From the IMG/VR virus record IMGVR_UViG_3300042381_000848, positions 1-64,000 of that record: DNA of 64,000 bases; one strand, given 5' to 3'. Of this stretch, positions 582-59,378 are shown piece by piece. The stretch's first letter is position 1. Each line of letters starts with the position of its first letter. The translations under genes and the position numbers were made by a program. The notes below the pieces were generated by a model. The model saw only the letters and a program-made list of their open reading frames with translations. It did not search any database and was not told where the DNA came from. The stretch comes from a virus.

Positions 582-1577
582 TTAAATTAATCCTGCTAAT
601 TTTTTCCAACGATTTGCCATTTCAAATCCCTCAGATAATATTTGCGTTGTTTGTTTAGATGGTGCAGTTGTAGAAATTGCTCTAGATGCTGCTGATTCTT
701 TTACCATCTTGCGTTTTTGAGTTGGTTTGATAAAGCTTTCAGCCAATGTAGCAAATACTAATTTTGCTTCTCTTGGAGATACTGCTCTATCAAAATTCTC
801 AATAACTTTCATTTTTTGACCTTCGTTTAAGTCAAAGTTACGGAACAATTTGTTGGTGTAAAGAAGTTTTGCATTTAAAAGATTAACTTCGTTGATAACA
901 GACTTAAGGTGTTTAACCGTACGGTATGCTTCTTCTAAGTTTTTCTCTAATTCTTCATTTTCGGTTTGTAATGCATCTACTTGAGCTGCACCAGCCATTG
1001 GCTCGTCTACCATTTCTTCTTCACGTAAGATTGATTCAATGATTGAATTGATATCTTCGTCAATTTCATCCGTTACTGGTTCTTCTGCTGGCATTTCTTG
1101 TTCGTTATATGCACCTTCTCCGTACATACCTTCATTTTCCATACCATCCATTGGTTCTTCCAAATCTCTTAAAATTTCTTCAAGATTAAGATCATCTTCT
1201 TCAGCTTCCATTTCTGGTTCAGCACCGACTTCCATTTCTGGTTCAGCACCGACTTCCATTTCTTCTTCACCGCCTAACATACCTGTTAAGTCATAATCAC
1301 CATCATCGTTGAAATCTAATCCAACATTTACTGAATCTGGGAATTCACCCATTTCCATTCCCGCTTCGTCTTCCATTCCTGGTTCTGCTTCTGCATCCAA
1401 GTCCATGTTAACATCCATTTCTTCGTCTTCTAATTCTTCTCGTAATTTAGCCGATAGCATGCCTTCAAGTCTAGGAGCAAATGCTTCCTGTAATGCAAGT
1501 TTTGCGTTTGCTAATGCCGTTTCTTTAACTGCTTTAGCATCAGCGATTGCTTGTTTTAGCAAATCTGATTTTGCCAT
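582..1577 (-). CDS. 22: Prohead core scaffolding protein, gp22-like
   Basis: 331 aa and extremely acidic in the middle (runs of E/D/M between residues about 45 and 190), with helical, charged ends. It starts MAKSDLLKQAIADAKAVKE and ends GFEMANRWKKLAGLI, the usual look of gp22 scaffolds in marine T4-like phages. A duplicated acidic motif (EMEVGAEPEMEVGAEPEMEA, about residues 105-125) arises from a short in-frame repeat. Scaffold proteins form the prohead core and are degraded by gp21; several LxE-type sites are present, such as LREE and ILREEE. It sits immediately upstream of the capsid gene. A late box lies 108 nt before the start, downstream of a terminator. Confidence 0.82.
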   Translation of the reverse strand: MAKSDLLKQAIADAKAVKETALANAKLALQEAFAPRLEGMLSAKLREELEDEEMDVNMDLDAEAEPGMEDEAGMEMGEFPDSVNVGLDFNDDGDYDLTGMLGGEEEMEVGAEPEMEVGAEPEMEAEEDDLNLEEILRDLEEPMDGMENEGMYGEGAYNEQEMPAEEPVTDEIDEDINSIIESILREEEMVDEPMAGAAQVDALQTENEELEKNLEEAYRTVKHLKSVINEVNLLNAKLLYTNKLFRNFDLNEGQKMKVIENFDRAVSPREAKLVFATLAESFIKPTQKRKMVKESAASRAISTTAPSKQTTQILSEGFEMANRWKKLAGLI

Positions 1578-3013: not shown

Positions 3014-3643
3014 TTATATCCTACATTTTCCGTCTTCACATAAAATTGATGTAATAATACTATTTACACCATTATATTTATTTTTTGCTATATTGTTACT
3101 AGTTGATTCGTTCATGTTCGTAGGCCGCATAAAAGCCCCATGTGTCGATGGATTTGAAACAAAGTCCCAACATATTAATTCAAAGTCTTCTTGTACTTCA
3201 ACTACACCCTCACTACGCAATTCTTTAACTGAACCCATTCCTCTACTAGAAATACCCAATGTAATCCCAGCTTTAAACAATGATTTCAATATATTGCCAG
3301 ATGGTGTATCTAGTATTTGTACTGCACCTAATAAATCATCACCATTCCACCATATTTTTAAAACATTGTGCGAGACATTGTTCAAATTAACTACAGATGA
3401 TTCTGGATGATCTAATTCTCCTAATGCTCTATGTTGATCAATATATTCTCGTTGATATCGTTGACATTCGCGCATTAGGATATTTTTTGGATAAACTCTA
3501 CCATTTTGATTTTTAGCTCCAGCACGTTGCAATACTCCTTGAACTACAACACCGCCTGGAATTCCATATGCGGCGCCTGATTGTTCAGTTAATGAACCCA
3601 TTGGCTTAAATGGTATATATTCGACTATTAATTGCTTTGACAT
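3014..3643 (-). CDS. 21: Prohead maturation protease, gp21-like
   Basis: 209 aa. It carries the conserved NGRVYP motif (about residues 47-52), ALGELDHPESS, VSHNVLKIWW with the presumed catalytic His, and GITLGISSRGMGSV with the presumed catalytic Ser, followed by DFELICWDFVSNPSTHGAF. These are the signature blocks of the T4 gp21/S80 protease family. The enzyme matures the prohead by cutting scaffold, capsid and internal proteins after (L/I)-x-E. This specificity is what makes the N-terminal leaders of other proteins in this window meaningful. Its own C-terminus after MNESTSN is variable. Confidence 0.92.
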   Translation of the reverse strand: MSKQLIVEYIPFKPMGSLTEQSGAAYGIPGGVVVQGVLQRAGAKNQNGRVYPKNILMRECQRYQREYIDQHRALGELDHPESSVVNLNNVSHNVLKIWWNGDDLLGAVQILDTPSGNILKSLFKAGITLGISSRGMGSVKELRSEGVVEVQEDFELICWDFVSNPSTHGAFMRPTNMNESTSNNIAKNKYNGVNSIITSILCEDGKCRI

Positions 3644-20394: not shown

Positions 20395-22515
20395 TTAATT
20401 ACCATATTTGTCTATAGTAGGAAACCAAAAACCGTCGACGGTTGCTAAATCTCCTTTAGACCTTTTTACTGCTGCCTGTAAACAAGCTAAAAAACTAGAT
20501 CCGGTTATATTAAAAGTTTTTTTATTAGGACTCCTTAGTTCTATTGGCTCCATTGCCATTTGTTTCAGTGAAGGTTCCTTTCCGGCTAGCAATATTTCTA
20601 CCTTCATTTTTTTTCCACCATCTGTCCAACCTGATCCAACACCTCGTACTATTACAAAATCTTTTACCTCACTTATGCCAACGAGTATCGATCCATATAC
20701 ATTAGCCATTAAATTATACACTTTAAGCATTAATGTTCCATCATCACGAAGATGTAAAAAAGCTTTCGCATCTGGCATCCAATCTCTACTTATACCAATT
20801 TCGCGATCAATATACCAAACTTTTAATTTTGCATCCCATCGTAATTTTGCTTTTAATTCTTTTGCAACATTTTCAATACCTCTTCGATATGGTTTATCCG
20901 TTGTTACTTTTAATGATTTATTCGGAGTTGTTGTTGTAGTTTTAGCAGGTTCTTTTTTTGGTGTTACTGTAGGTTTAGGTGCAGTCTTAACAGCGGGTGT
21001 TGTTGATTTTACTGCCGGAGTTGTTGATTTAGGTACTTCTTTTTTTATAGGTTGATTTACTGTTACTGTGTTAGCCGCTTCATAATCAAAGCCAGATAAA
21101 TCTTGCTCTAGAAGTATCGATTTTAAAGAAAATACTGATTCCGTTTTTAATGGTGCTGTTAATTTTTCGATTAACTGAGGTAATATTTCATCAGTATCTC
21201 CAAGTTTATAACCTTTATTTAATGCACGTATTACTGCTTTTGACTTATCGCCCCATTTACCATCAATTGGTTTGTTCAAAGAAGCCCATGTTTTAACAGC
21301 TGGTACGTCTTTAAATGTAGGTACTACTTTTTGCATAATCAATTGTTGAAATGCTTCTGCTACCCAATTTATATCAGTCAAATTTGTGTTACCTATCAAT
21401 TGTTGTTTACGTATTTTTTGCTCTAATTTAACACCTGGATTTTTAGGATCATCATATTGACTAGTATATGTTAAAACTACATCACCGGTTAGTTGATTTG
21501 CATCTTGTTCTTTACCACTAAAAAATGTGTCTAAATCAGTCGTTATTGGTTGTTTATCATTGATTTGTTTTACTAAACGATCATATTGTTCTTTTGTTAT
21601 TCGCCGGAATTTTGTATAGCCTTTATATTTTGTATCTAAAGGCGTTGTTTCATCAATGAATTCGAATTCTGTTAAATCTCGAAACATTTCTTTTTCAAAT
21701 TGAAGCCACTCCGGTGTTTTATCAACATACCGTGCATTTGACCATAATCCATTGATTTCTGAAACTACAACATCATTAGCAGTAGTATGCTGTTTTATAT
21801 CAGTTTTTGGATCAAATGTATCTTTTAGTTTAAATAATAGTATTGATCCGATTCTAGCCTGAACAAATGTATCGCCTGGTTTAAATTTAGATTCTGCAGT
21901 TTTTTCTTTCGTGTCTGATGAACTACCACCTCCGTTGTCTTTTTTAACAACTACTATCTTCTCGTCTCCGCTAGGTACGTCAGCAATTGTATTATTAAGT
22001 ATGTCATTGATTTGTTTGATTAATGAAGCACCTGTAAAATTATCTATAAATTTATCCGAAGCTGAAGTATTTATAACCGAAACAAAATCACTTACTTTGA
22101 TAACATCACTACTACCAACTTTACCTGATGACTTAGGTGGTGTTTTAAAGTAATCATCAATGTCTTGCCATTCTTGCTTTCCTTTATCAACATTTACTAG
22201 TTTTCGTTTGGGATAAATTAATACATCAGTTACCAGACGACGTTCTGAACCTTGTTTCCGATCATCACCTATTACATAATACCAATCGCCATTTGCAAAT
22301 TTAGATGCAGGGCCATATTGTGTATTTTTAGGCGATGTTAAAACATACATGATATCTTGTTCAAAATTTGGCGGAGTTTCCTCATCACGAGTTGCTTTAA
22401 ACTTGATACGAAATACACCTGCCATTAAATCTGCCGCTTTTGCTATTATAGCATTAGGTGACTTTTTTAATATATAATTTACATCTTCTGTTAATAGTTT
22501 TTTTAAACTGATCAT
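20395..22515 (-). CDS. Large protein with capsid-targeting-like leader and internal cleavage-like site
   Basis: 706 aa, no family recognised. It starts MISLKKLLTE|DVNYI, matching the leader shared by other proteins here and the gp21 (L/I)xE rule. A second copy of the motif lies inside: SLKSILLE|QDLSG, with the Glu at residue 470. It is followed by a Pro/Thr/Lys linker with short repeats (STTPAVK, about residues 490-540), so the protein may be cut into two domains. Residues about 420-445 (LNKPIDGKWGDKSKAVIRAL) resemble a peptidoglycan-binding fold. The C-terminal domain (YRRGIENVAKELKAKLRWDA...) is well structured. Late box 19 nt upstream. Confidence 0.7.
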   Translation of the reverse strand: MISLKKLLTEDVNYILKKSPNAIIAKAADLMAGVFRIKFKATRDEETPPNFEQDIMYVLTSPKNTQYGPASKFANGDWYYVIGDDRKQGSERRLVTDVLIYPKRKLVNVDKGKQEWQDIDDYFKTPPKSSGKVGSSDVIKVSDFVSVINTSASDKFIDNFTGASLIKQINDILNNTIADVPSGDEKIVVVKKDNGGGSSSDTKEKTAESKFKPGDTFVQARIGSILLFKLKDTFDPKTDIKQHTTANDVVVSEINGLWSNARYVDKTPEWLQFEKEMFRDLTEFEFIDETTPLDTKYKGYTKFRRITKEQYDRLVKQINDKQPITTDLDTFFSGKEQDANQLTGDVVLTYTSQYDDPKNPGVKLEQKIRKQQLIGNTNLTDINWVAEAFQQLIMQKVVPTFKDVPAVKTWASLNKPIDGKWGDKSKAVIRALNKGYKLGDTDEILPQLIEKLTAPLKTESVFSLKSILLEQDLSGFDYEAANTVTVNQPIKKEVPKSTTPAVKSTTPAVKTAPKPTVTPKKEPAKTTTTTPNKSLKVTTDKPYRRGIENVAKELKAKLRWDAKLKVWYIDREIGISRDWMPDAKAFLHLRDDGTLMLKVYNLMANVYGSILVGISEVKDFVIVRGVGSGWTDGGKKMKVEILLAGKEPSLKQMAMEPIELRSPNKKTFNITGSSFLACLQAAVKRSKGDLATVDGFWFPTIDKYGN

Positions 22516-22534: not shown

Positions 22535-22542
22535 ATAAATAT
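22535..22542 (-). promoter_or_regulatory. Late box ATATTTAT
   Basis: 19 nt before the start of the 706-aa protein gene and touching the stop of the kinase-like gene. Confidence 0.5.
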
Positions 22543-23087
22543 CACCAATCTACTAATACGAGCTTGTTATTCCACAACATCATGTTCGATGAACTAAAAT
22601 CTAAATCTAAATCAAAATCGGCAATACCTAATTTGTCTACATCTCTTTGCAATGCTCGAATAAAATTAACTAGTTTAACATCCATATTACGGGCTCCATC
22701 TGCATCTAAAAAATCAAATATTGAAACTTCACCTCCTTCTGATCTAGCAAATTGTTTGAATTGATCTGTGAATGCATCAATATTCATACGATCTGAATCT
22801 GGTAATATTTCTGCATTTGCCATTATATACAATTGTTCTCGATCACTAATATAATATACCGGTATAAAACATGTAAATTCAGCTGACCGATTTACAATAA
22901 TTGTAGCAACTTCAAATTCATCGCGTTCAGTGGTAATTTTAAAAACTTTATCTTCTCCATCAATCTCATAGACACGGCCATTATCACCTCCACCGATTAA
23001 ACGAAATTGTTTGTTTTTTATTTTATCTAACAATCTAGTTTTTTCTGAGTCAGATAATTCTCGTAAAAGTTGTTTTAATCGTATCAT
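22542..23087 (-). CDS. Short kinase-fold protein with capsid-targeting-like leader
   Basis: 181 aa. After the leader MIRLKQLLRE|LSDSE comes a protein-kinase/APH-like N-lobe: glycine loop IGGGDNGRVYEI (31-42) and Lys50 in DKVFKIT. The C-terminal end DLDFSSSN followed by LVLVDW matches the catalytic loop (D163, N168) and metal-binding Asp (D180) of aminoglycoside/RIO-type kinases. The chain stops right after that Asp, so the normal helical C-lobe is missing. Overlaps the upstream gene by four bases. I infer a small kinase or pseudokinase delivered with the DNA; substrate unknown. Confidence 0.7.
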   Translation of the reverse strand: MIRLKQLLRELSDSEKTRLLDKIKNKQFRLIGGGDNGRVYEIDGEDKVFKITTERDEFEVATIIVNRSAEFTCFIPVYYISDREQLYIMANAEILPDSDRMNIDAFTDQFKQFARSEGGEVSIFDFLDADGARNMDVKLVNFIRALQRDVDKLGIADFDLDLDFSSSNMMLWNNKLVLVDW

Positions 23088-39639: not shown

Positions 39640-40671
39640 TCATTGTAAAATTATTGCTGAATTATTTTCTTGGCAACATTGTACTCCGATATGCTGTAAC
39701 GCTTGTTCTTTAGCCTTAGCCTCTACCTCGATATCTAATGCATCAACTGCATATGTATTAGGCAAACATGTAATAAAATCAGCATGTGCTTGTTCTCTAA
39801 TCTTGGTAAATTCTTTGTATTGTTTATGAAAGGTAGGCCATTTCGGCAAATCTTCTATTGCAATATTGTGATGTTCAAACATTCTTTCTACCAAAATTTG
39901 AGACTCTCTACGACGAGATTCACTATAATGGGTACATTGGGTTACATTGTGTATATCCCACGTCTCGCGTGCTAAAAAGAAGGCTTCGCGTTCGGATAAG
40001 TCACCTGTATTGAAAGTGTGATGCCAATAATCAAATGTTATCGGAATCTGTGTAGGCACATGTAAATACTCATACAATTCTCGTACTGAATACATAGAAG
40101 CTTTGTCATCATTTTCAATAACTAAACGTGCACGGCACGATTCTGATAAACGATAATAGTTATGCAACCATCTTGCAATAGTACCAGGCTTATCATTGTA
40201 AGTGGCACCTACATGGATGTTGATAAGATTGTCAAAAGATGGTGCAAAGCCCATAAGGTCAAACAATTCGCTATGTCGTTCTAAACTAACAAGACTATTA
40301 TCAACAACTACCGCATCGGGACTACCTAGGATATGAAATGGCCCGGGATGCGTTGTAATGCGATGGCCATGCTGTTTTGCATAGTCACCTGCAGCTTGAA
40401 GATGCTGTGTAATTTCTTCAATACCAGGAAGATGATGCAACTCATAATGATTCCAACGTGGGAATAATTCTGAACCAATACGGAATAGACGTATACCATG
40501 TTGCTCGTTCCATTGCAGGATAGGCAATAAATCTTTTGCATTGGCAAGTGCAATGTCAGAAGCCAATTGTAAACCGCCAATCTTGAACTTGCGATCAATC
40601 ATTGCTCTACCGGTTCGAATTCCTTGTGCTGATAGTTGCTGGTTGATACAGCAGTAACCGTAACGAATCAT
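39640..40671 (-). CDS. UV damage endonuclease, UvdE/UvsE-like
   Basis: 343 aa. N-terminus RYGYCCINQQL is the UVDE start; FRIGSELFPRWNHYELHHLP, ITTHPGPFHILGSPD, NLINIHVGATYNDKPGTI, ARLVIENDDKASMYS, ITFDYWHHTFNTGD are consecutive TIM-barrel metal sites of the UVDE family. It nicks DNA 5' of UV photoproducts. The gene is more GC-rich and uses different codons from its neighbours by eye, hinting at acquisition. No late box directly upstream; it faces the divergent gene at 40796. Confidence 0.92.
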   Translation of the reverse strand: MIRYGYCCINQQLSAQGIRTGRAMIDRKFKIGGLQLASDIALANAKDLLPILQWNEQHGIRLFRIGSELFPRWNHYELHHLPGIEEITQHLQAAGDYAKQHGHRITTHPGPFHILGSPDAVVVDNSLVSLERHSELFDLMGFAPSFDNLINIHVGATYNDKPGTIARWLHNYYRLSESCRARLVIENDDKASMYSVRELYEYLHVPTQIPITFDYWHHTFNTGDLSEREAFFLARETWDIHNVTQCTHYSESRRRESQILVERMFEHHNIAIEDLPKWPTFHKQYKEFTKIREQAHADFITCLPNTYAVDALDIEVEAKAKEQALQHIGVQCCQENNSAIILQ

Positions 40672-40795: not shown

Positions 40796-41866
40796 ATGAA
40801 AAACATTTTAGCAGAAAATTTACTTCGATTTGGAGTAAAGAATATTAATCACGTTGATAGAGCAGTTATACAACATTTATCAGAAATTGCACCTGGTGGG
40901 TCATCAATATCTCCAGAAGCACAAGCACAAATAGATGCAATGATTGCTGCCACCATGGCGCCAGTTACGTCATTTATAAAAACAAATCCGATTACATTCA
41001 TAACTCCAGGCGATCCATTAACCGTTACAAGTGCAACGATAAGTTCAAATAAAGGAGACGTAAATGCAAATTATGATCTTAATGTACGATTGAATTCAAC
41101 ATTTACTCAAAATCCTATAGATTTATCACTTAAAGGAGTAGAAGGTGCGACGCTGCAATTAAAAATCGGCGGAGGTAACCAATGGGGTGCAATTGATAAA
41201 ATGAATGTTTATAAAGCTCTTATATATACATGGGGCGCCGCAGGTGCTAAGGCAGTTGGGCTTGACAAATATATGATAGCAAACCATCCTACTACAAAAC
41301 CATTGAATGATGCTGGTAAAAATCCATTAGATCTAATTGTTAGTTTACTTAACATAGTAGTTAATAAATGGAAGTCAGGAAAAATGGCTACTTCGGAATC
41401 TAAAATTTACGAAATTGCACCAGCTGGAGGTACAATATCTCCAGACGCACAAGCAAACATGGATAAATTAGTTGCCGAAACGCAAGGTATAGTTTCAAAA
41501 TATATTAATAGCTCATTGAAACTAGATTTAAAAGGCGGAGGACCGATTGCAGTTCTTAAGGCAATAGTAAGAGGTAGAGCAGCAGGTGGTATAGCAGTTG
41601 ACGTACAATGGAATATAAAAAATGAAGGTGTGTATTATAGTCATTCATTTCCTATATCTTCAAAAGACGGAGTTAAACCTGCAGGGTATTACGGACTTGA
41701 CGCAGCTGCCGGCAAAAGTTCTTTTGATACACAGTTTCCAAAATTCATAACACAGTATTTTCAAACCACCGGTGCTAATTATGAAGCATGTAAACAAGGT
41801 ATATGGAATGGAATTTTAGCAGTTGCAGACAAATATACTAAATCAGGTGTAGCAACTAAAGGTTAA
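40796..41866 (+). CDS. Putative internal head protein with two homologous domains, each after a protease-like site
   Basis: 356 aa on the plus strand, no known family. It begins MKNILAE|NLL. A first domain starts after QHLSE|IAPGG (Glu30) and a second, similar one after KIYE|IAPAGG (Glu206). Both share the pattern IAP-GG--ISP-AQA-(I/M)D. The second site has Y rather than L/I two residues before the Glu partner, so cutting is less certain. The layout suggests a polyprotein cut by gp21 into two related products. It has its own late box and terminator, as expected for an abundant virion protein. Confidence 0.72.
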   Translation: MKNILAENLLRFGVKNINHVDRAVIQHLSEIAPGGSSISPEAQAQIDAMIAATMAPVTSFIKTNPITFITPGDPLTVTSATISSNKGDVNANYDLNVRLNSTFTQNPIDLSLKGVEGATLQLKIGGGNQWGAIDKMNVYKALIYTWGAAGAKAVGLDKYMIANHPTTKPLNDAGKNPLDLIVSLLNIVVNKWKSGKMATSESKIYEIAPAGGTISPDAQANMDKLVAETQGIVSKYINSSLKLDLKGGGPIAVLKAIVRGRAAGGIAVDVQWNIKNEGVYYSHSFPISSKDGVKPAGYYGLDAAAGKSSFDTQFPKFITQYFQTTGANYEACKQGIWNGILAVADKYTKSGVATKG

Positions 41867-41925: not shown

Positions 41926-42390
41926 TCAATTGATACTAAATAAACCTGAGGTATTCTGAACCATTGTAACACCTTTACCGTCATTGCCTTCATAGTCAAA
42001 CCAAGACATTAACAATTGTTCTTTACCAGGATTAAGATTTAATTCAACGGTAACAGGCAATGTAACAACTTTACCGTTTTTTTCTACACCTTCATCATTA
42101 TATGTTAATACGGCAATTTTTGCTTTTTTATCATATTTTAAACTTGTAAATGATTTAGTTGCAATTATACCGTTAATATTATATGTTATGGTTTGCAAAC
42201 CTAAATCAAATTCATATGTTGCATTTACTGATTCAGATAATTCTACTTGAACAACGGCATTAAAAACATCTTTATATGACATTTTTCCGTGTGCTGCGGT
42301 ATATGTAGATGTACTACCGATAAGAGATACTACTTGTGAAAAGCTTACTGTGCTAATCAACGTTGCTGCTGCTAAAAATAACTTTTTCAT
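41926..42390 (-). CDS. Exported protein with flavobacterial-type signal peptide
   Basis: 154 aa. Signal peptide MKKLFLAAATLISTVSFSQ followed by a soluble, beta-rich domain with no cysteines. The FSQ end is typical of Flavobacteriia signal peptides. Contains QVVSLIGSTSTYTAAHG and LVTLPVTVELNLNPG-like strands. Function unknown; perhaps acts in the host periplasm or at the surface, for example in lysis timing or exclusion of other phages. No late box was found upstream, so its promoter class is open. Confidence 0.68.
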   Translation of the reverse strand: MKKLFLAAATLISTVSFSQVVSLIGSTSTYTAAHGKMSYKDVFNAVVQVELSESVNATYEFDLGLQTITYNINGIIATKSFTSLKYDKKAKIAVLTYNDEGVEKNGKVVTLPVTVELNLNPGKEQLLMSWFDYEGNDGKGVTMVQNTSGLFSIN

Positions 42391-42479
42391 GGCTTTAAAA
42401 TTTAATTGTTTAATTATTTAATTATATATATAATATATAGAATATAAATTCAATATCCAACCTATAGGTAAACTTTTTT

Positions 42480-42923
42480 ATGATAAAATTAAAAAATTTA
42501 ATAACTGAATCGAATCATATGGATATGTCATATGATATAGGTCCTAGCTCTATCAATGGTAAAGGTGTAATTGCTATTAAAATGATTCCTGCAGGATGTA
42601 AGGGATTAGCACATATTCATTCCGGTGATTTTAACAAGTATGCATATAGTGACTTAGGATATTTTATTAATCATTCCGAAACACCTAATTGTGATATCAT
42701 ATCAACTAACAATCGCCGCTATATTCGAACATTGCAAGACTTACAACCCGACGAAGAACTTACATGTAATTATTGGAATGGGCCTAAAGACTTAGAACGA
42801 CCAGATGCATTCCAAAAACCAGAACATGATGATTATGGTTTACGAAAAAGTTCTGGATGGAATATTAAACAGCTAACAACCGTTTCAGAACCATATATTA
42901 AATACGTTTTAACTAGAAATTAA
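42480..42923 (+). CDS. SET-domain protein (lysine methyltransferase-like) with capsid-targeting-like leader
   Basis: 147 aa on the plus strand. Leader MIKLKNLITE|SNHMD. Then SET motifs: SSINGKGVIAIKMIPAG (G-x-G loop), LGYFINHSETPNCDI (NHS-x-x-PN) and DLQPDEELTCNYW (the ELTYDY-like block). These are the SAM- and substrate-binding motifs of SET methyltransferases; the fold is short but complete. SET proteins are rare in phages. With the leader, it may be packaged and injected to modify host proteins, which is an inference. Confidence 0.8.
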   Translation: MIKLKNLITESNHMDMSYDIGPSSINGKGVIAIKMIPAGCKGLAHIHSGDFNKYAYSDLGYFINHSETPNCDIISTNNRRYIRTLQDLQPDEELTCNYWNGPKDLERPDAFQKPEHDDYGLRKSSGWNIKQLTTVSEPYIKYVLTRN

Positions 42924-43486
42924 TTCTTTTTTACAAATCCACTTAAAAAGTCTCGTTGCTTTTGGATTGCTGAATCAAGTTCAACATTTTTTCGTTTTTT
43001 TGTATGTTGTTGCTGCACTCCGTTATTGCTAGGCAGAACATCATTCTCCACGCCATTTGATCCGGCGGTGTTTGATTTAGTTTTTCTATTAGCGGCACTA
43101 GAAATGCGTCGCTTGCTTGAATCACCGCTTCGGCCTTCATTGTTTGACCTTGGGGCGTCTCTAAAAATTTCTGTAGCATTAAGGGGTTGTGGCCCGGCGT
43201 CAATTCGTTTTGCAAGTTCATCATTTCCATAAGTGGCTGTTTCTTCGAATAAGATGCATCCGATATGATAACTTGTTCGATACGTTTTGATTTGAATGCC
43301 GCACGGATACGTTGTACCCAACGAAAGAACACTGTATTGAATGCCCCAACTAACTTTTTTATATTCTTTAACATAACCATATTTTTTTGCTCCTAACCAT
43401 GTAAATAAAACAGGCTCTCCTTGTTTAAAGAGAGCCTTGTTAAATTGTTTTTCTATAGATTCTGGAACGTTAGATTTCTTTGCCAT
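42920..43486 (-). CDS. Hypothetical protein; C-terminal half overlaps another reading frame
   Basis: 188 aa. Residues 20-90 (GEPVLFTWLGAKKYGYVKEY, then QYSVLSLGTTYPCGIQIKTY) look like a small beta domain. Residues about 105-165 are Ser/Asn/Lys low complexity, and the end (DSAIQKQRDFLSGFVKKN) is helical. The start is six bases after the upstream stop, which supports this frame. The low-complexity part coincides with the alternative frame 42943-43380, as expected if one frame is constrained by the other. Overlaps the SET gene's end by four bases. Confidence 0.6.
   Translation of the reverse strand: MAKKSNVPESIEKQFNKALFKQGEPVLFTWLGAKKYGYVKEYKKVSWGIQYSVLSLGTTYPCGIQIKTYRTSYHIGCILFEETATYGNDELAKRIDAGPQPLNATEIFRDAPRSNNEGRSGDSSKRRISSAANRKTKSNTAGSNGVENDVLPSNNGVQQQHTKKRKNVELDSAIQKQRDFLSGFVKKN
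42943..43380 (-). CDS. Possible overprinted protein in a second frame
   Basis: 145 aa, entirely inside 42920-43486 in another frame on the same strand. The product looks like a natural helical protein (ELTPGHNPLMLQKFLETPQG, then QASDAFLVPLIEKLNQTPPD, then MAWRMMFCLAITECSNNIQK). It is as convincing as the longer frame in its C-terminal part. No separate promoter is seen; it might be translated by re-initiation or leaky scanning. It could instead be a shadow frame. Confidence 0.4.
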   Translation of the reverse strand: MVMLKNIKKLVGAFNTVFFRWVQRIRAAFKSKRIEQVIISDASYSKKQPLMEMMNLQNELTPGHNPLMLQKFLETPQGQTMKAEAVIQASDAFLVPLIEKLNQTPPDQMAWRMMFCLAITECSNNIQKNEKMLNLIQQSKSNETF

Positions 43487-47536: not shown

Positions 47537-49552
47537 TCAACTTAAACGTGAACGTATTTCGCTTCCGATAGTGTTATAAATATCAGTATAAATATGTGCG
47601 TCTGTTTGATTTCCGATTGCAGTTGGTATAATAGTAACACCGTTTTTTGCAAAATATGAATAATATGTATCTACTGTTTGTTGACTTACTTTTACTAACG
47701 CACCGCCACGTGCCCAAGTAGCTTTTGGCCCATATGTGCCTTTAACTACAAAAAGCTTTGCATTTGGAAATTTAGCACGAAGTTGTTTAACTAATTCAGT
47801 TACAGTATTTGATGATGTTTTATATATACCATTAGTACCAATACAAATAACTATATTTTTAACTTCTGGATCTTTTGCGGTATAAGGTTTTACATGATTA
47901 TTTAATAATCCTTCTACAGTAATTCCACTTTTCCATAAACCAGGAGCTGCTGTTATTCCTGCAGATCTTGCAACATTTGGTGTTAATGAATCACCAATTG
48001 CAATGCTTTTACCTAATGGTTTATTAGTTGAAGTTAAATTGCTAGTTGCTGCTGTAGATGCTCCAACGCTACTTAAAATCCATCCAGCTTCGCGTCCTCT
48101 TCTAGATTTATTTGCAGATAATGCAGCAACGGCATTTGCAACTTGCTTAGAATCTCCGGTCTGTGCAGCATCTATAACTGTTTTAGGTATTCTACCGTAA
48201 TTATATGCAACGGACGTTAATGCAGCAATTGTTGCATTATTATATTTCGACGCAATCGAGCCTAATGATTTTTTAGTTAACGGAATAAATTCGGAATTTA
48301 ATCTTCGTTTCAAATCTCGTTCAGCATCTTCTTCTGTAATTGTTATATTTGGTTTTACTGCTCTATTATTAGATAATGTTACAATAGAACCGTCGGGTTT
48401 TGTAATAGTACTACTACCATGGCCGATACGCCAATTGTTAACATCCCACATTGGAGTAAGAATCATGCCTTCTTCTTTTCTAAGTATTGCAGCTGTCTGT
48501 GTAGCAATATCATCTGAAAAACTTGCTTTATAATCGCCAAATGCATTTACTGCACTAGATATAATATTTCCGAAATCTAATGATGATTTTGTTTCATCAT
48601 TTTTATCGAATATATTCTTCATAAAATCTGGCATTAATGAACCGAACATACCAGCCCATTTTGAAAATGCTCTCGCACCTGGTTTCAATATAGCACGTGC
48701 TGTATTTTCATCTATATATCCAGTAACAGGCATTTCATTAATTGTTTGAAATGTTTTTACAGCTTGAAGTGTCGAGTCTCCGAATGTTCCTGATTTAATT
48801 TCAGTAGCATCAATTGTATATTCTAAACTTGCTAAACGACGTTGTACAACTTGCAGATTAGGTGACTTATCTCCTTGTTTAAATGATTTAAGATCAGATG
48901 CTGCACCTTTTTGTTTTTTCTCATCATCAGTTTTATCTAAAATTTTAGGATCTATTTTAGGATCTATTTCTGATAAATATTTTAGCCATTGTTTTGCAAT
49001 TATTTGTTGTCCTTCTTCATTTAACAAGATTTTATTTTTTTGAAAAAATGTTTTATTGTCAGTTAATGTATAGGCATCAATATTAAAATCAGAAATTTGT
49101 TGAGTATTTACCCAATCTGCAATTTCGGGTGTATTTGCATATTTTACATGACCATATGGTGCAAATTCTTTGGTTGGTGGAGAAATTGTAATAAAATTGC
49201 CGCCATTATCTTCAATTGCATTAAACATGACTTTTAAAACTTCAATTGCAGATACTTTATCATTAGGCACGGTATTGCTAAACATCAATGAAACTACATT
49301 ATAGTTATTAGCAAGATTTGTTTGTAATAATGATAATAATTTAGTAATATCCCCTTCTGCTGTAGAAACAACATTCCCAGTAACTACACCTGAATTTAAA
49401 ATATCATATGCATAACTAAAACGAGAATGAGTATCGCCATCGCCTATAAATAAAACATTGAGTTTATCTTTTGGCTTAGATGTTGAATCGCTAGTTCTTT
49501 CTTTATCGAAATTAGTATCTTGTTCAAACAATAAATTTTGTAGTTGTATCAT
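47537..49552 (-). CDS. Multidomain cell-wall enzyme: SGNH - PG-binding - lysozyme - SGNH, with capsid-targeting-like leader
   Basis: 671 aa. After the leader MIQLQNLLFE|QDTNF come: an SGNH/GDSL-like domain (LNVLFIGDGDTHSRFSY, residues about 30-195); a PG_binding_1 domain (GDKSPNLQVVQRRLASLEYT, then FGDSTLQAVKTFQTINEMPV); a GH24 T4-type lysozyme domain (LRKEEGMILTPMWDVNNWRI with catalytic Glu, about residues 350-490); and a second SGNH hydrolase (SIAIGDSLTPNVARSAGITA, IVICIGTNGIYK). It could degrade peptidoglycan and deacetylate sugars. The leader suggests packaging rather than ordinary endolysin use; both remain possible. Confidence 0.82.
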   Translation of the reverse strand: MIQLQNLLFEQDTNFDKERTSDSTSKPKDKLNVLFIGDGDTHSRFSYAYDILNSGVVTGNVVSTAEGDITKLLSLLQTNLANNYNVVSLMFSNTVPNDKVSAIEVLKVMFNAIEDNGGNFITISPPTKEFAPYGHVKYANTPEIADWVNTQQISDFNIDAYTLTDNKTFFQKNKILLNEEGQQIIAKQWLKYLSEIDPKIDPKILDKTDDEKKQKGAASDLKSFKQGDKSPNLQVVQRRLASLEYTIDATEIKSGTFGDSTLQAVKTFQTINEMPVTGYIDENTARAILKPGARAFSKWAGMFGSLMPDFMKNIFDKNDETKSSLDFGNIISSAVNAFGDYKASFSDDIATQTAAILRKEEGMILTPMWDVNNWRIGHGSSTITKPDGSIVTLSNNRAVKPNITITEEDAERDLKRRLNSEFIPLTKKSLGSIASKYNNATIAALTSVAYNYGRIPKTVIDAAQTGDSKQVANAVAALSANKSRRGREAGWILSSVGASTAATSNLTSTNKPLGKSIAIGDSLTPNVARSAGITAAPGLWKSGITVEGLLNNHVKPYTAKDPEVKNIVICIGTNGIYKTSSNTVTELVKQLRAKFPNAKLFVVKGTYGPKATWARGGALVKVSQQTVDTYYSYFAKNGVTIIPTAIGNQTDAHIYTDIYNTIGSEIRSRLS

Positions 49553-53062: not shown

Positions 53063-53584
53063 TTATGAAGGGCTCACACCTGTTGAATCTGCGTTGCTAC
53101 GACGAACCAACCACAATTCATTTCTACGCTGCATTGTCATGTATCCTGCGGAAGCAATTCGTGCCCAATTGTCCTTAACAAATGCAGCATATAAACGAGT
53201 CTTTTGATATTCTTTGTCGGAATCCGAATCAGCTCCACTTATGTTAACAGACTCAGGTGCATGATTTGCACAAAAATCTAGTATTGCTTCTCCGGCAGTA
53301 CGTATGAGACGCAAATAGTTGAGTTGTCCGACAGCACCACTTTTTGTATGCGATGTAGTGCGACCAGCAGTCAGTGCATTTGGATTACGGGTAGGCATTG
53401 TAAATGCAAAATACCATTCATTGTTTTCGCCATGTACCATTACGAATTCAATGTTTGTGGAATCGGCTGTAACGTTGCATTTCCATCGATCGGTTGATCC
53501 CATTGTTTGCCACGCAAATTGGGTGGCATAAGGTTGAACGGAGCCAAAGGTAATTTCCGTTAATATGTTGTGTAATTTAATCAT
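53063..53584 (-). CDS. Capsid-targeted paralogue A
   Basis: 173 aa. MIKLHNILTE|ITFGS, then a domain shared with the next gene: ATQFAW, EFVMVHGENNEWYFAFTMPT, GQLNYLRLIRTAGEAILDFC, APESVNISGADSDSDKEYQK, TRLYAAFVKDNWARIASAGY. The pattern -T--E-ILDF----P--V---G------KT-LY--------L--AGY is common in uncharacterised phage proteins. Here the (L/I)xE site sits right at the domain start. One-base overlap (TAATG) with the upstream paralogue gene. Confidence 0.7.
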   Translation of the reverse strand: MIKLHNILTEITFGSVQPYATQFAWQTMGSTDRWKCNVTADSTNIEFVMVHGENNEWYFAFTMPTRNPNALTAGRTTSHTKSGAVGQLNYLRLIRTAGEAILDFCANHAPESVNISGADSDSDKEYQKTRLYAAFVKDNWARIASAGYMTMQRRNELWLVRRSNADSTGVSPS

Positions 53585-58530: not shown

Positions 58531-59271
58531 CTACAAGTATTGCTCCAATAATTTGATGCCTGGCATTGCCTGTAAGCCTTTCTCTGCCAATCTAACCAAT
58601 TGACGTGCTCGCTCTCCGGTAACACCTAACTCCTCAGCTATCTGCTCCATTGGCTTAGCATACTCATATCCAATGCCATAATTCATTGTTATTGCTAAGC
58701 GTTGCTTCTCAGGTAATTGGTTCAATGCTCTCTGCAAGTCAAACAACAAATCCGATTTATCTCTACCTGACTTGGTTGCTTCAGACTCTAAGAATCGATC
58801 CGCATATGTTTCTTTGTTGTCATCATCGCCTACCGGAGTATGTATACTTTTAATATACTGTGGTTCGGTTGATGTCTTGTGGGATGGGATCCTAACGACA
58901 CGGGATAAATCATTTAATGCCTTTTGTATCTCGGCTCTGATATACCATACTGCAAAGGTAATGAATTTGACACCTTTAGTGACATCGAACCTTTCAGCTG
59001 CTTCAAACAATCCTACATTGGCAAATCCAATAAGATCTTCTAGCTCTAAGCCCATTCCTTGATATTGACGAGCAACTTGGATAGCGAAGCGTAAATTGGT
59101 TTCTATTAACTTGTTGCGGGCTTGTATATCGCCTTTTACCATAGCCTCAGCTAATGCCTTCTGATCCGTAGCGGCTATGTTAGACGCTTTCTTAATCTCC
59201 TTAACATAGATCCTAGTACTTGTAACATCTGTAACAATTGCACCATTTCCAACATGAATTCTTTTTTTCAT
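58531..59271 (-). CDS. RpoD-like sigma factor
   Basis: 246 aa from ATG 59271 (MKKRIHVGNG); the ATG at 59364 would run through an early cassette. Region 2: NLRFAIQVARQYQGMGLELE, then DLIGFANVGLFEAAERFDVT, then FITFAVWYIRAEIQKALN (about residues 54-120). Region 4: LPEKQRLAITMNYGIGY, then ELGVTGERARQLVRLAEKGL (about residues 185-230). This is a primary-type sigma-70 and distinct from gp55. It probably helps the host polymerase read phage early or middle genes. Confidence 0.88.
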   Translation of the reverse strand: MKKRIHVGNGAIVTDVTSTRIYVKEIKKASNIAATDQKALAEAMVKGDIQARNKLIETNLRFAIQVARQYQGMGLELEDLIGFANVGLFEAAERFDVTKGVKFITFAVWYIRAEIQKALNDLSRVVRIPSHKTSTEPQYIKSIHTPVGDDDNKETYADRFLESEATKSGRDKSDLLFDLQRALNQLPEKQRLAITMNYGIGYEYAKPMEQIAEELGVTGERARQLVRLAEKGLQAMPGIKLLEQYL

Positions 59272-59310
59272 TCTCTCTTTTTTAAATTTATAACTCTTAA
59301 TTCCTATACA

Positions 59311-59360
59311 TAAAGATAAGCATTTTATCTTTCGGATCCTAATCTTTTGGTAACTTTTTT
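59311..59360 (-). promoter_or_regulatory. Early promoter cassette H
   Basis: AAAAGATTAGG-18-TTATCTTTATGTATA upstream of the sigma factor; spacer ATCCGAAAGATAAAATGC. Confidence 0.72.
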
Positions 59361-59378
59361 CCAACTTTTTTAGCCCGC

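What the first reader, a model, noticed from the sequence alone, without database searches (positions are those of the whole stretch)
42480..42923. SET-domain protein with a virion leader
The NHS-x-x-PN and ELT-x-x-Y motifs make a SET lysine methyltransferase fold very likely, a fold rare in phages. Combined with the leader MIKLKNLITE it would be a protein methyltransferase packaged and injected. It also lies on the plus strand, against the general direction.
Basis: partly seen in the sequence, partly recalled or inferred. Interest (0 to 1): 0.75.

Follow-up and report, generated by a model that had tools for sequence, protein, structure and literature searches.

The report
Capsid-tagged SET methyltransferase in phage
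A T4-like virus of Bacteroidetes-type bacteria carries a tiny SET-fold (protein-methylating) enzyme joined to a short tag that looks like the address label T4 uses to load proteins into its head, suggesting, though not yet proving, that the virus packs and injects a protein methyltransferase.

Summary
ORF 42480-42923(+) is a real 147-aa gene. Pfam SET hits above its cut-off (E 1.9e-9), and the AlphaFold core superposes on solved SET domains (Z up to 12.4; viral vSET Z 11.2). NHS..PN, the Glu and the Tyr of ELTCNY are invariant in 71 relatives. "Rare in phages" is wrong for environmental phages: at least 488 IMG/VR stretches encode relatives, all those examined outside this clade without the leader.

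The leader is real. Two orthologues in sister contigs keep it: MIKLKNLITESNH is 13/13 identical at 70% overall identity, with only synonymous changes. The internal ATG is not conserved. The leader fits the T4 IPII/IPIII capsid-targeting frame (hydrophobic 4 and 7, I/L 8, E10). The phage encodes a gp21-type prohead protease. The third orthologue has Asp at position 10, which in T4 IPIII blocks cleavage but not targeting.

The gene sits in a hypervariable island beside a UV-endonuclease gene. Nearly all genes there on its strand (97/104) start with an L/I-x-E tag on unrelated bodies, so SET is one optional cargo: intact in 3 of 47 islands, a remnant in 2.

Packaging is strongly inferred. Injection, activity and substrate are unproven.

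The parts
42480..42923 (+). CDS, 147 aa: leader + minimal SET domain + lineage-specific C-terminal tail
   Evidence: orthologues L165:332-775(-) 70% and L174:2197-2643(-) 60%
42480..42509 (+). 10-residue leader MIKLKNLITE, inferred capsid-targeting tag; predicted cut after E10
   Evidence: 13/13 identical in L165 with 3 synonymous and 0 nonsynonymous changes; IKLKNLI kept in L174 with E10->D; T4 frame
42531..42779 (+). SET core, residues 18-100, pLDDT mostly above 80
42663..42692 (+). FINHSETPNC, AdoMet-site motif; N64, H65 and N70 invariant in 71 relatives
42756..42773 (+). ELTCNY motif with E93 and the presumed catalytic Y98, both invariant
42780..42920 (+). C-terminal tail (residues 101-147), found only in this clade; SEPYIKYV conserved; low model confidence
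42391..42479 (.). divergent intergenic region shared with the signal-peptide gene; holds TATCCAACC (42454-42462), a motif enriched between such genes in the island
41926..42390 (-). 154-aa protein with Bacteroidetes-type signal peptide, divergent neighbour of SET and convergent partner of the next tagged gene
40796..41866 (+). tagged cargo gene, leader MKNILAENLLRFGVKN, 356 aa, body without known family
39640..40671 (-). UvdE UV-endonuclease, right flank of the cargo island
   Evidence: Pfam UvdE 3.9e-54
42920..43486 (-). 188-aa protein, left flank of the cargo island in 47 contigs
3014..3643 (-). prohead protease, T4 gp21 type
   Evidence: phrog_207 head maturation protease 4.2e-54
582..1577 (-). 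probable prohead core/scaffold protein with 12 [LI]xE sites (role inferred from position and sites)
20395..22515 (-). other tagged gene, MISLKKLLTED
22542..23087 (-). other tagged gene, MIRLKQLLREL
47537..49552 (-). other tagged gene, MIQLQNLLFEQ, endolysin-like body
53063..53584 (-). other tagged gene, MIKLHNILTEI

Best explanation
The gene encodes a minimal SET-fold, AdoMet-dependent protein-lysine methyltransferase that travels as internal head cargo. The N-terminal peptide MIKLKNLITE docks the protein on the prohead core (inferred by likeness of form with the T4 CTS). The gp21-type protease cuts after Glu10 (inferred; site shown, protease gene shown). The mature SET protein stays in the capsid and enters the host with the DNA, where it methylates a lysine of a host protein early in infection (inferred; substrate unknown). 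It is one optional item in a hypervariable island of tagged cargo genes. Shown: SET fold, intact catalytic residues, conservation of the leader by purifying selection, many unrelated proteins with the same type of tag, protease gene. Not shown: presence in virions, cleavage, injection, enzymatic activity, substrate.
For: SET fold and residues. Leader kept in an orthologue while the body diverges (pN 0.000 in the leader against 0.158 in the SET part and 0.253 in the tail, window against L165). The internal ATG (codon 14) is absent in both orthologues, so the leader is translated in them. Leaderless SET relatives in other phages begin about where residues 14-18 begin here, so the leader is an added module. 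97 of 104 island genes on this strand have [LI]xE in the first 22 residues, against 3 of 74 on the other strand and 9% in internal 22-mers; the bodies fall in 50 clusters. gp21-type protease. T4 rules: cut after L/I-X-E, first 10 residues suffice, residues 4 and 7 target, 8 and 10 process, Asp10 blocks processing but not targeting (PMC9026906); L174 carries that Asp. T4 ipII/ipIII read MKTYQEFIAE.
Against: No proteome. The leader is not shown to be homologous to T4's by sequence; only the frame matches. The cut-site Glu is not conserved in L174. The SET-I insert that helps bind substrate in histone methyltransferases is nearly absent, so activity on proteins is not assured. Other phages with SET genes do without a leader and keep them near portal, terminase or baseplate genes, which also fits action on virion proteins.
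Confidence: 0.6

Rival explanations
1. The tag brings the SET protein to the prohead, but its job is there: it methylates lysines of core, capsid or co-packaged proteins during assembly, and injection is incidental.
For: Leaderless SET genes of other phages lie beside portal (15 loci), terminase (12 loci) and gp25/gp6 baseplate genes (6 loci).
Against: The gene is optional: missing in 42 of 47 sister islands and decayed in two, which suits a host-directed accessory cargo better than an assembly step.
Confidence: 0.2
2. The SET fold has lost catalysis and acts as a packaged binding module or inhibitor, as T4 IPI inhibits a restriction enzyme.
For: SET-I insert nearly absent; T4 internal proteins are a diverse set of small defence proteins (PMC3012670).
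Against: N64, H65, N70, E93 and Y98 are invariant in 71 relatives; a pure scaffold would not need them all.
Confidence: 0.12
3. The leader is not a capsid tag; it is an amphipathic helix for another purpose and the SET protein works in the cytoplasm of the producing cell.
For: No direct packaging data; the frame is short and degenerate.
Against: Tag spread over unrelated bodies, with a conserved L/I-x-E at the end and a gp21-type protease in the same genome; T4 positive control.
Confidence: 0.08

Closest known systems
T4 internal head proteins IPII/IPIII with capsid-targeting sequence (MKTYQEFIAE)
   Same: 10-residue N-terminal peptide, hydrophobic at 4 and 7, I at 8, E at 10; gp21-type protease; unrelated bodies behind one tag; locus next to a UV-repair endonuclease gene (denV in T4, UvdE here)
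   Different: Sequence of the tag is not shown to be homologous; cargo is a SET enzyme; island has repeated convergent partners with signal peptides
Leaderless small SET proteins of cyanophages P-RSM6 and P-SSM7, Pelagibacter phage Kolga and many uncultured phages (phrog_28741)
   Same: Same minimal SET core and motifs, roughly 30-40% identity
   Different: No leader, different C-terminus, different gene neighbourhood
PBCV-1 vSET (A612L)
   Same: Free-standing small viral SET, Z 11.2 over 84 residues
   Different: Chlorella virus histone H3K27 enzyme; its SET-I is longer in the alignment; whether it bears a capsid tag was not tested
T4 Alt (packaged, injected ADP-ribosyltransferase; established knowledge)
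   Same: Works like: enzyme with cleaved N-terminal propeptide carried in the head
   Different: Different chemistry and fold

Membership tests
SET-domain family (PF00856) | Profile match above curated cut-off | tested here: met
   38.3 bits against 22.4
SET-domain family (PF00856) | SET fold | tested here: met
   Z 12.4, 85 residues; Foldseek E 1.3e-6
SET-domain family (PF00856) | NHSxxPN and ELxxxY active-site motifs | tested here: met
SET-domain family (PF00856) | Lysine methyltransferase activity | not testable with these tools
   needs purified protein
T4-type CTS-tagged internal head proteins (works like; homology not claimed) | N-terminal peptide in the IPIII frame ending L/I-x-E | tested here: met
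   MIKLKNLITE
T4-type CTS-tagged internal head proteins (works like; homology not claimed) | gp21-type prohead protease in the genome | tested here: met
   3014-3643(-), phrog_207 4.2e-54
T4-type CTS-tagged internal head proteins (works like; homology not claimed) | Cut-site Glu conserved in orthologues | tested here: inconclusive
   E in window and L165, D in L174
T4-type CTS-tagged internal head proteins (works like; homology not claimed) | Present and cleaved in virions | not testable with these tools
   no virion proteome for this phage

The most novel reading that the evidence does not exclude
A bacterial virus packs a SET protein-lysine methyltransferase in its head and injects it to methylate a host protein at the start of infection, from an island in which tagged head cargoes are shuffled as cassettes with cognate secreted partners.
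Probability: 0.5. Interest if true: 0.78.

Novelty: new variant of a known kind. Interest (0 to 1): 0.62.

Why it matters
SET enzymes are known mainly as chromatin modifiers. A phage that injects one would add lysine methylation to the short list of injected protein modifications (ADP-ribosylation by T4 Alt). It would also point to an unknown host target, and to a whole class of tagged cargo readable from sequence alone in a large freshwater phage group.

Tried and rejected
Search with the single protein in viral contigs found nothing; alignments and a leader-plus-SET DNA pattern were needed. Translation from the internal ATG at codon 14 was considered and rejected: no ATG at that position in either orthologue. 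Defence-system (PADLOC) and NCBIfam models: no hit for SET or its partner. Literature on SET proteins in phages: none found among open papers. A match of the orthologue profile in L182/L183 proved to be only a C-terminal remnant, not a gene. T4-late-like TATAAATA upstream of tagged genes was checked; it is found before 9 of 89 of them against 24 of 62 signal-peptide genes, so the expression timing of the tagged genes is unresolved.

Full report
Observation. ORF 42480-42923(+) encodes 147 aa. Pfam SET hits it above the cut-off, covering the SET-C half. The source is a 65,022-base linear virus record. The genome is T4-like: gp17-type terminase, portal and gp21-type protease. The nearest cultured phages by terminase and protease are Microcystis phage Mel-JY01 and the Flavobacterium phages immuto, at about 55% identity. 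The host is unknown; Bacteroidetes is inferred from these relatives and from the form of the signal peptides.

SET fold. An AlphaFold model from 68 sequences has pLDDT mostly above 80 over residues 18-100, with the leader and the C-terminal tail uncertain. It superposes on MLL and EZH2 SET domains at Z about 12 and on PBCV-1 vSET at 11.2. Residues S23, G27, G29, N64, H65, N70, E93 and Y98 are invariant in 71 sequences. Against MLL, about 27 residues of the SET-I region are missing, so this is a minimal SET whose substrate groove must differ.

Frequency. UniProt already names SET proteins in uncultured Caudovirales. So 'rare in phages' is not right for environmental phages. None of about 80 such phage SET genes examined outside this clade has the leader. 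They lie near portal, terminase or gp25/gp6 genes.

Leader. A pattern search for leader plus SET motifs in 2.9 million viral contigs gave one record, L165, an orthologue at 70% identity in the same gene order. The first 13 residues are identical, with three synonymous and no nonsynonymous differences, while the SET part and the tail have 33 and 28 nonsynonymous ones. A third orthologue, L174, keeps IKLKNLI but has Asp for Glu10. The internal ATG at codon 14 is not conserved, so the leader is translated in both orthologues. In T4 IPIII, residues 4 and 7 of the 10-residue tag target the protein, residues 8 and 10 govern the cut, the protease cuts after L/I-X-E, and Asp at 10 blocks the cut but not the targeting (PMC9026906). 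MIKLKNLITE fits each position, as do T4 ipII and ipIII (MKTYQEFIAE); T4 ipI does not fit this frame. The frame occurs at 0.22% of internal positions but starts 5 of 63 window ORFs. The frame was taken from the T4 literature, but after the leader had been seen.

Island. Eighty contigs with a near relative of the UvdE protein were fetched. Forty-seven loci, the window included, hold both flanks of the SET locus; the stretch between the flanks is 284 to 7,830 bases and varies in content. Genes on the SET strand carry a tag: 97 of 104 have [LI]xE in the first 22 residues, against 3 of 74 on the other strand and 9% of internal 22-mers. Their bodies form 50 clusters. Some contigs are near duplicates, so these counts are not all independent. 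SET is intact in the window, L165 and L174; L182 and L183, probably one phage, keep a C-terminal remnant at the same place. SET is therefore optional cargo. T4 also has ipII and ipIII beside a UV endonuclease gene, denV.

Pairs. The other island genes encode proteins with signal peptides (65 of 74 by a crude rule). They stand convergent to a tagged gene, and families pair specifically: score 23 against a shuffled mean of 2.6 and maximum of 13, none of 10,000 shuffles reaching it. SET itself has no such partner on its tail side. What the pairs do is unknown; one signal-side family is CAP-like (at the Pfam cut-off) and one is a rhomboid protease.

Mechanism. The best reading is cargo packaging by a T4-type tag, processing by the gp21-type protease, and delivery of a small methyltransferase. 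Packaging is inferred with good support (about 0.8), catalysis is likely (about 0.8), and delivery to a host target is less certain (about 0.5). Rivals are action on virion proteins, a dead SET used as an inhibitor, and a leader of other purpose.

Novelty. Tagged internal proteins and viral SET proteins are each known. Their union was not found in the open papers searched, which do not cover most subscription journals or preprints.

Noticed in passing
island between homologues of window 42920-43486 and 39640-40671, in 47 loci (window, L165, and members of L171-L248): Repeated convergent pairs of a signal-peptide gene and a tagged (capsid-targeting-like) gene, with specific family pairing (0 of 10,000 shuffles). 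They could be injected effectors with periplasmic immunity or superinfection-exclusion partners.
   Followed up: partly
window 42454-42462 and other divergent intergenic regions of the island: TATCCAACC / GGTTGGATA is strongly enriched between divergent tagged and signal-peptide genes; a shared promoter or a recombination joint for cassette shuffling.
   Followed up: partly
window 22542-23087(-): Tagged 181-aa protein whose body by eye resembles a small protein-kinase fold (GGGDNGRVYEI, later SSSNMML..LVLVDW); no Pfam, NCBIfam or PADLOC hit.
   Followed up: no
L256-L261, L263, L265-L267, L269, L270: A second phage SET family (MFEQILHSINHYGKTKLAPS...) in environmental phage contigs, with longer SET-I and no MIKLK leader.
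   Followed up: no
window 58531-59364(-): Phage-encoded RpoD/RpoS-like sigma factor (NCBIfam E 1.6e-39, below the equivalog cut-off).
   Followed up: no
window 47537-49552(-): An endolysin-like protein carries the same type of tag, so a cell-wall enzyme may also be head cargo.
   Followed up: no
L166:24569-24994 and L168:3366-3806 (Flavobacterium phage immuto 2-6A): A cultured relative has two proteins with the same type of leader, usable for a direct virion test.
   Followed up: no
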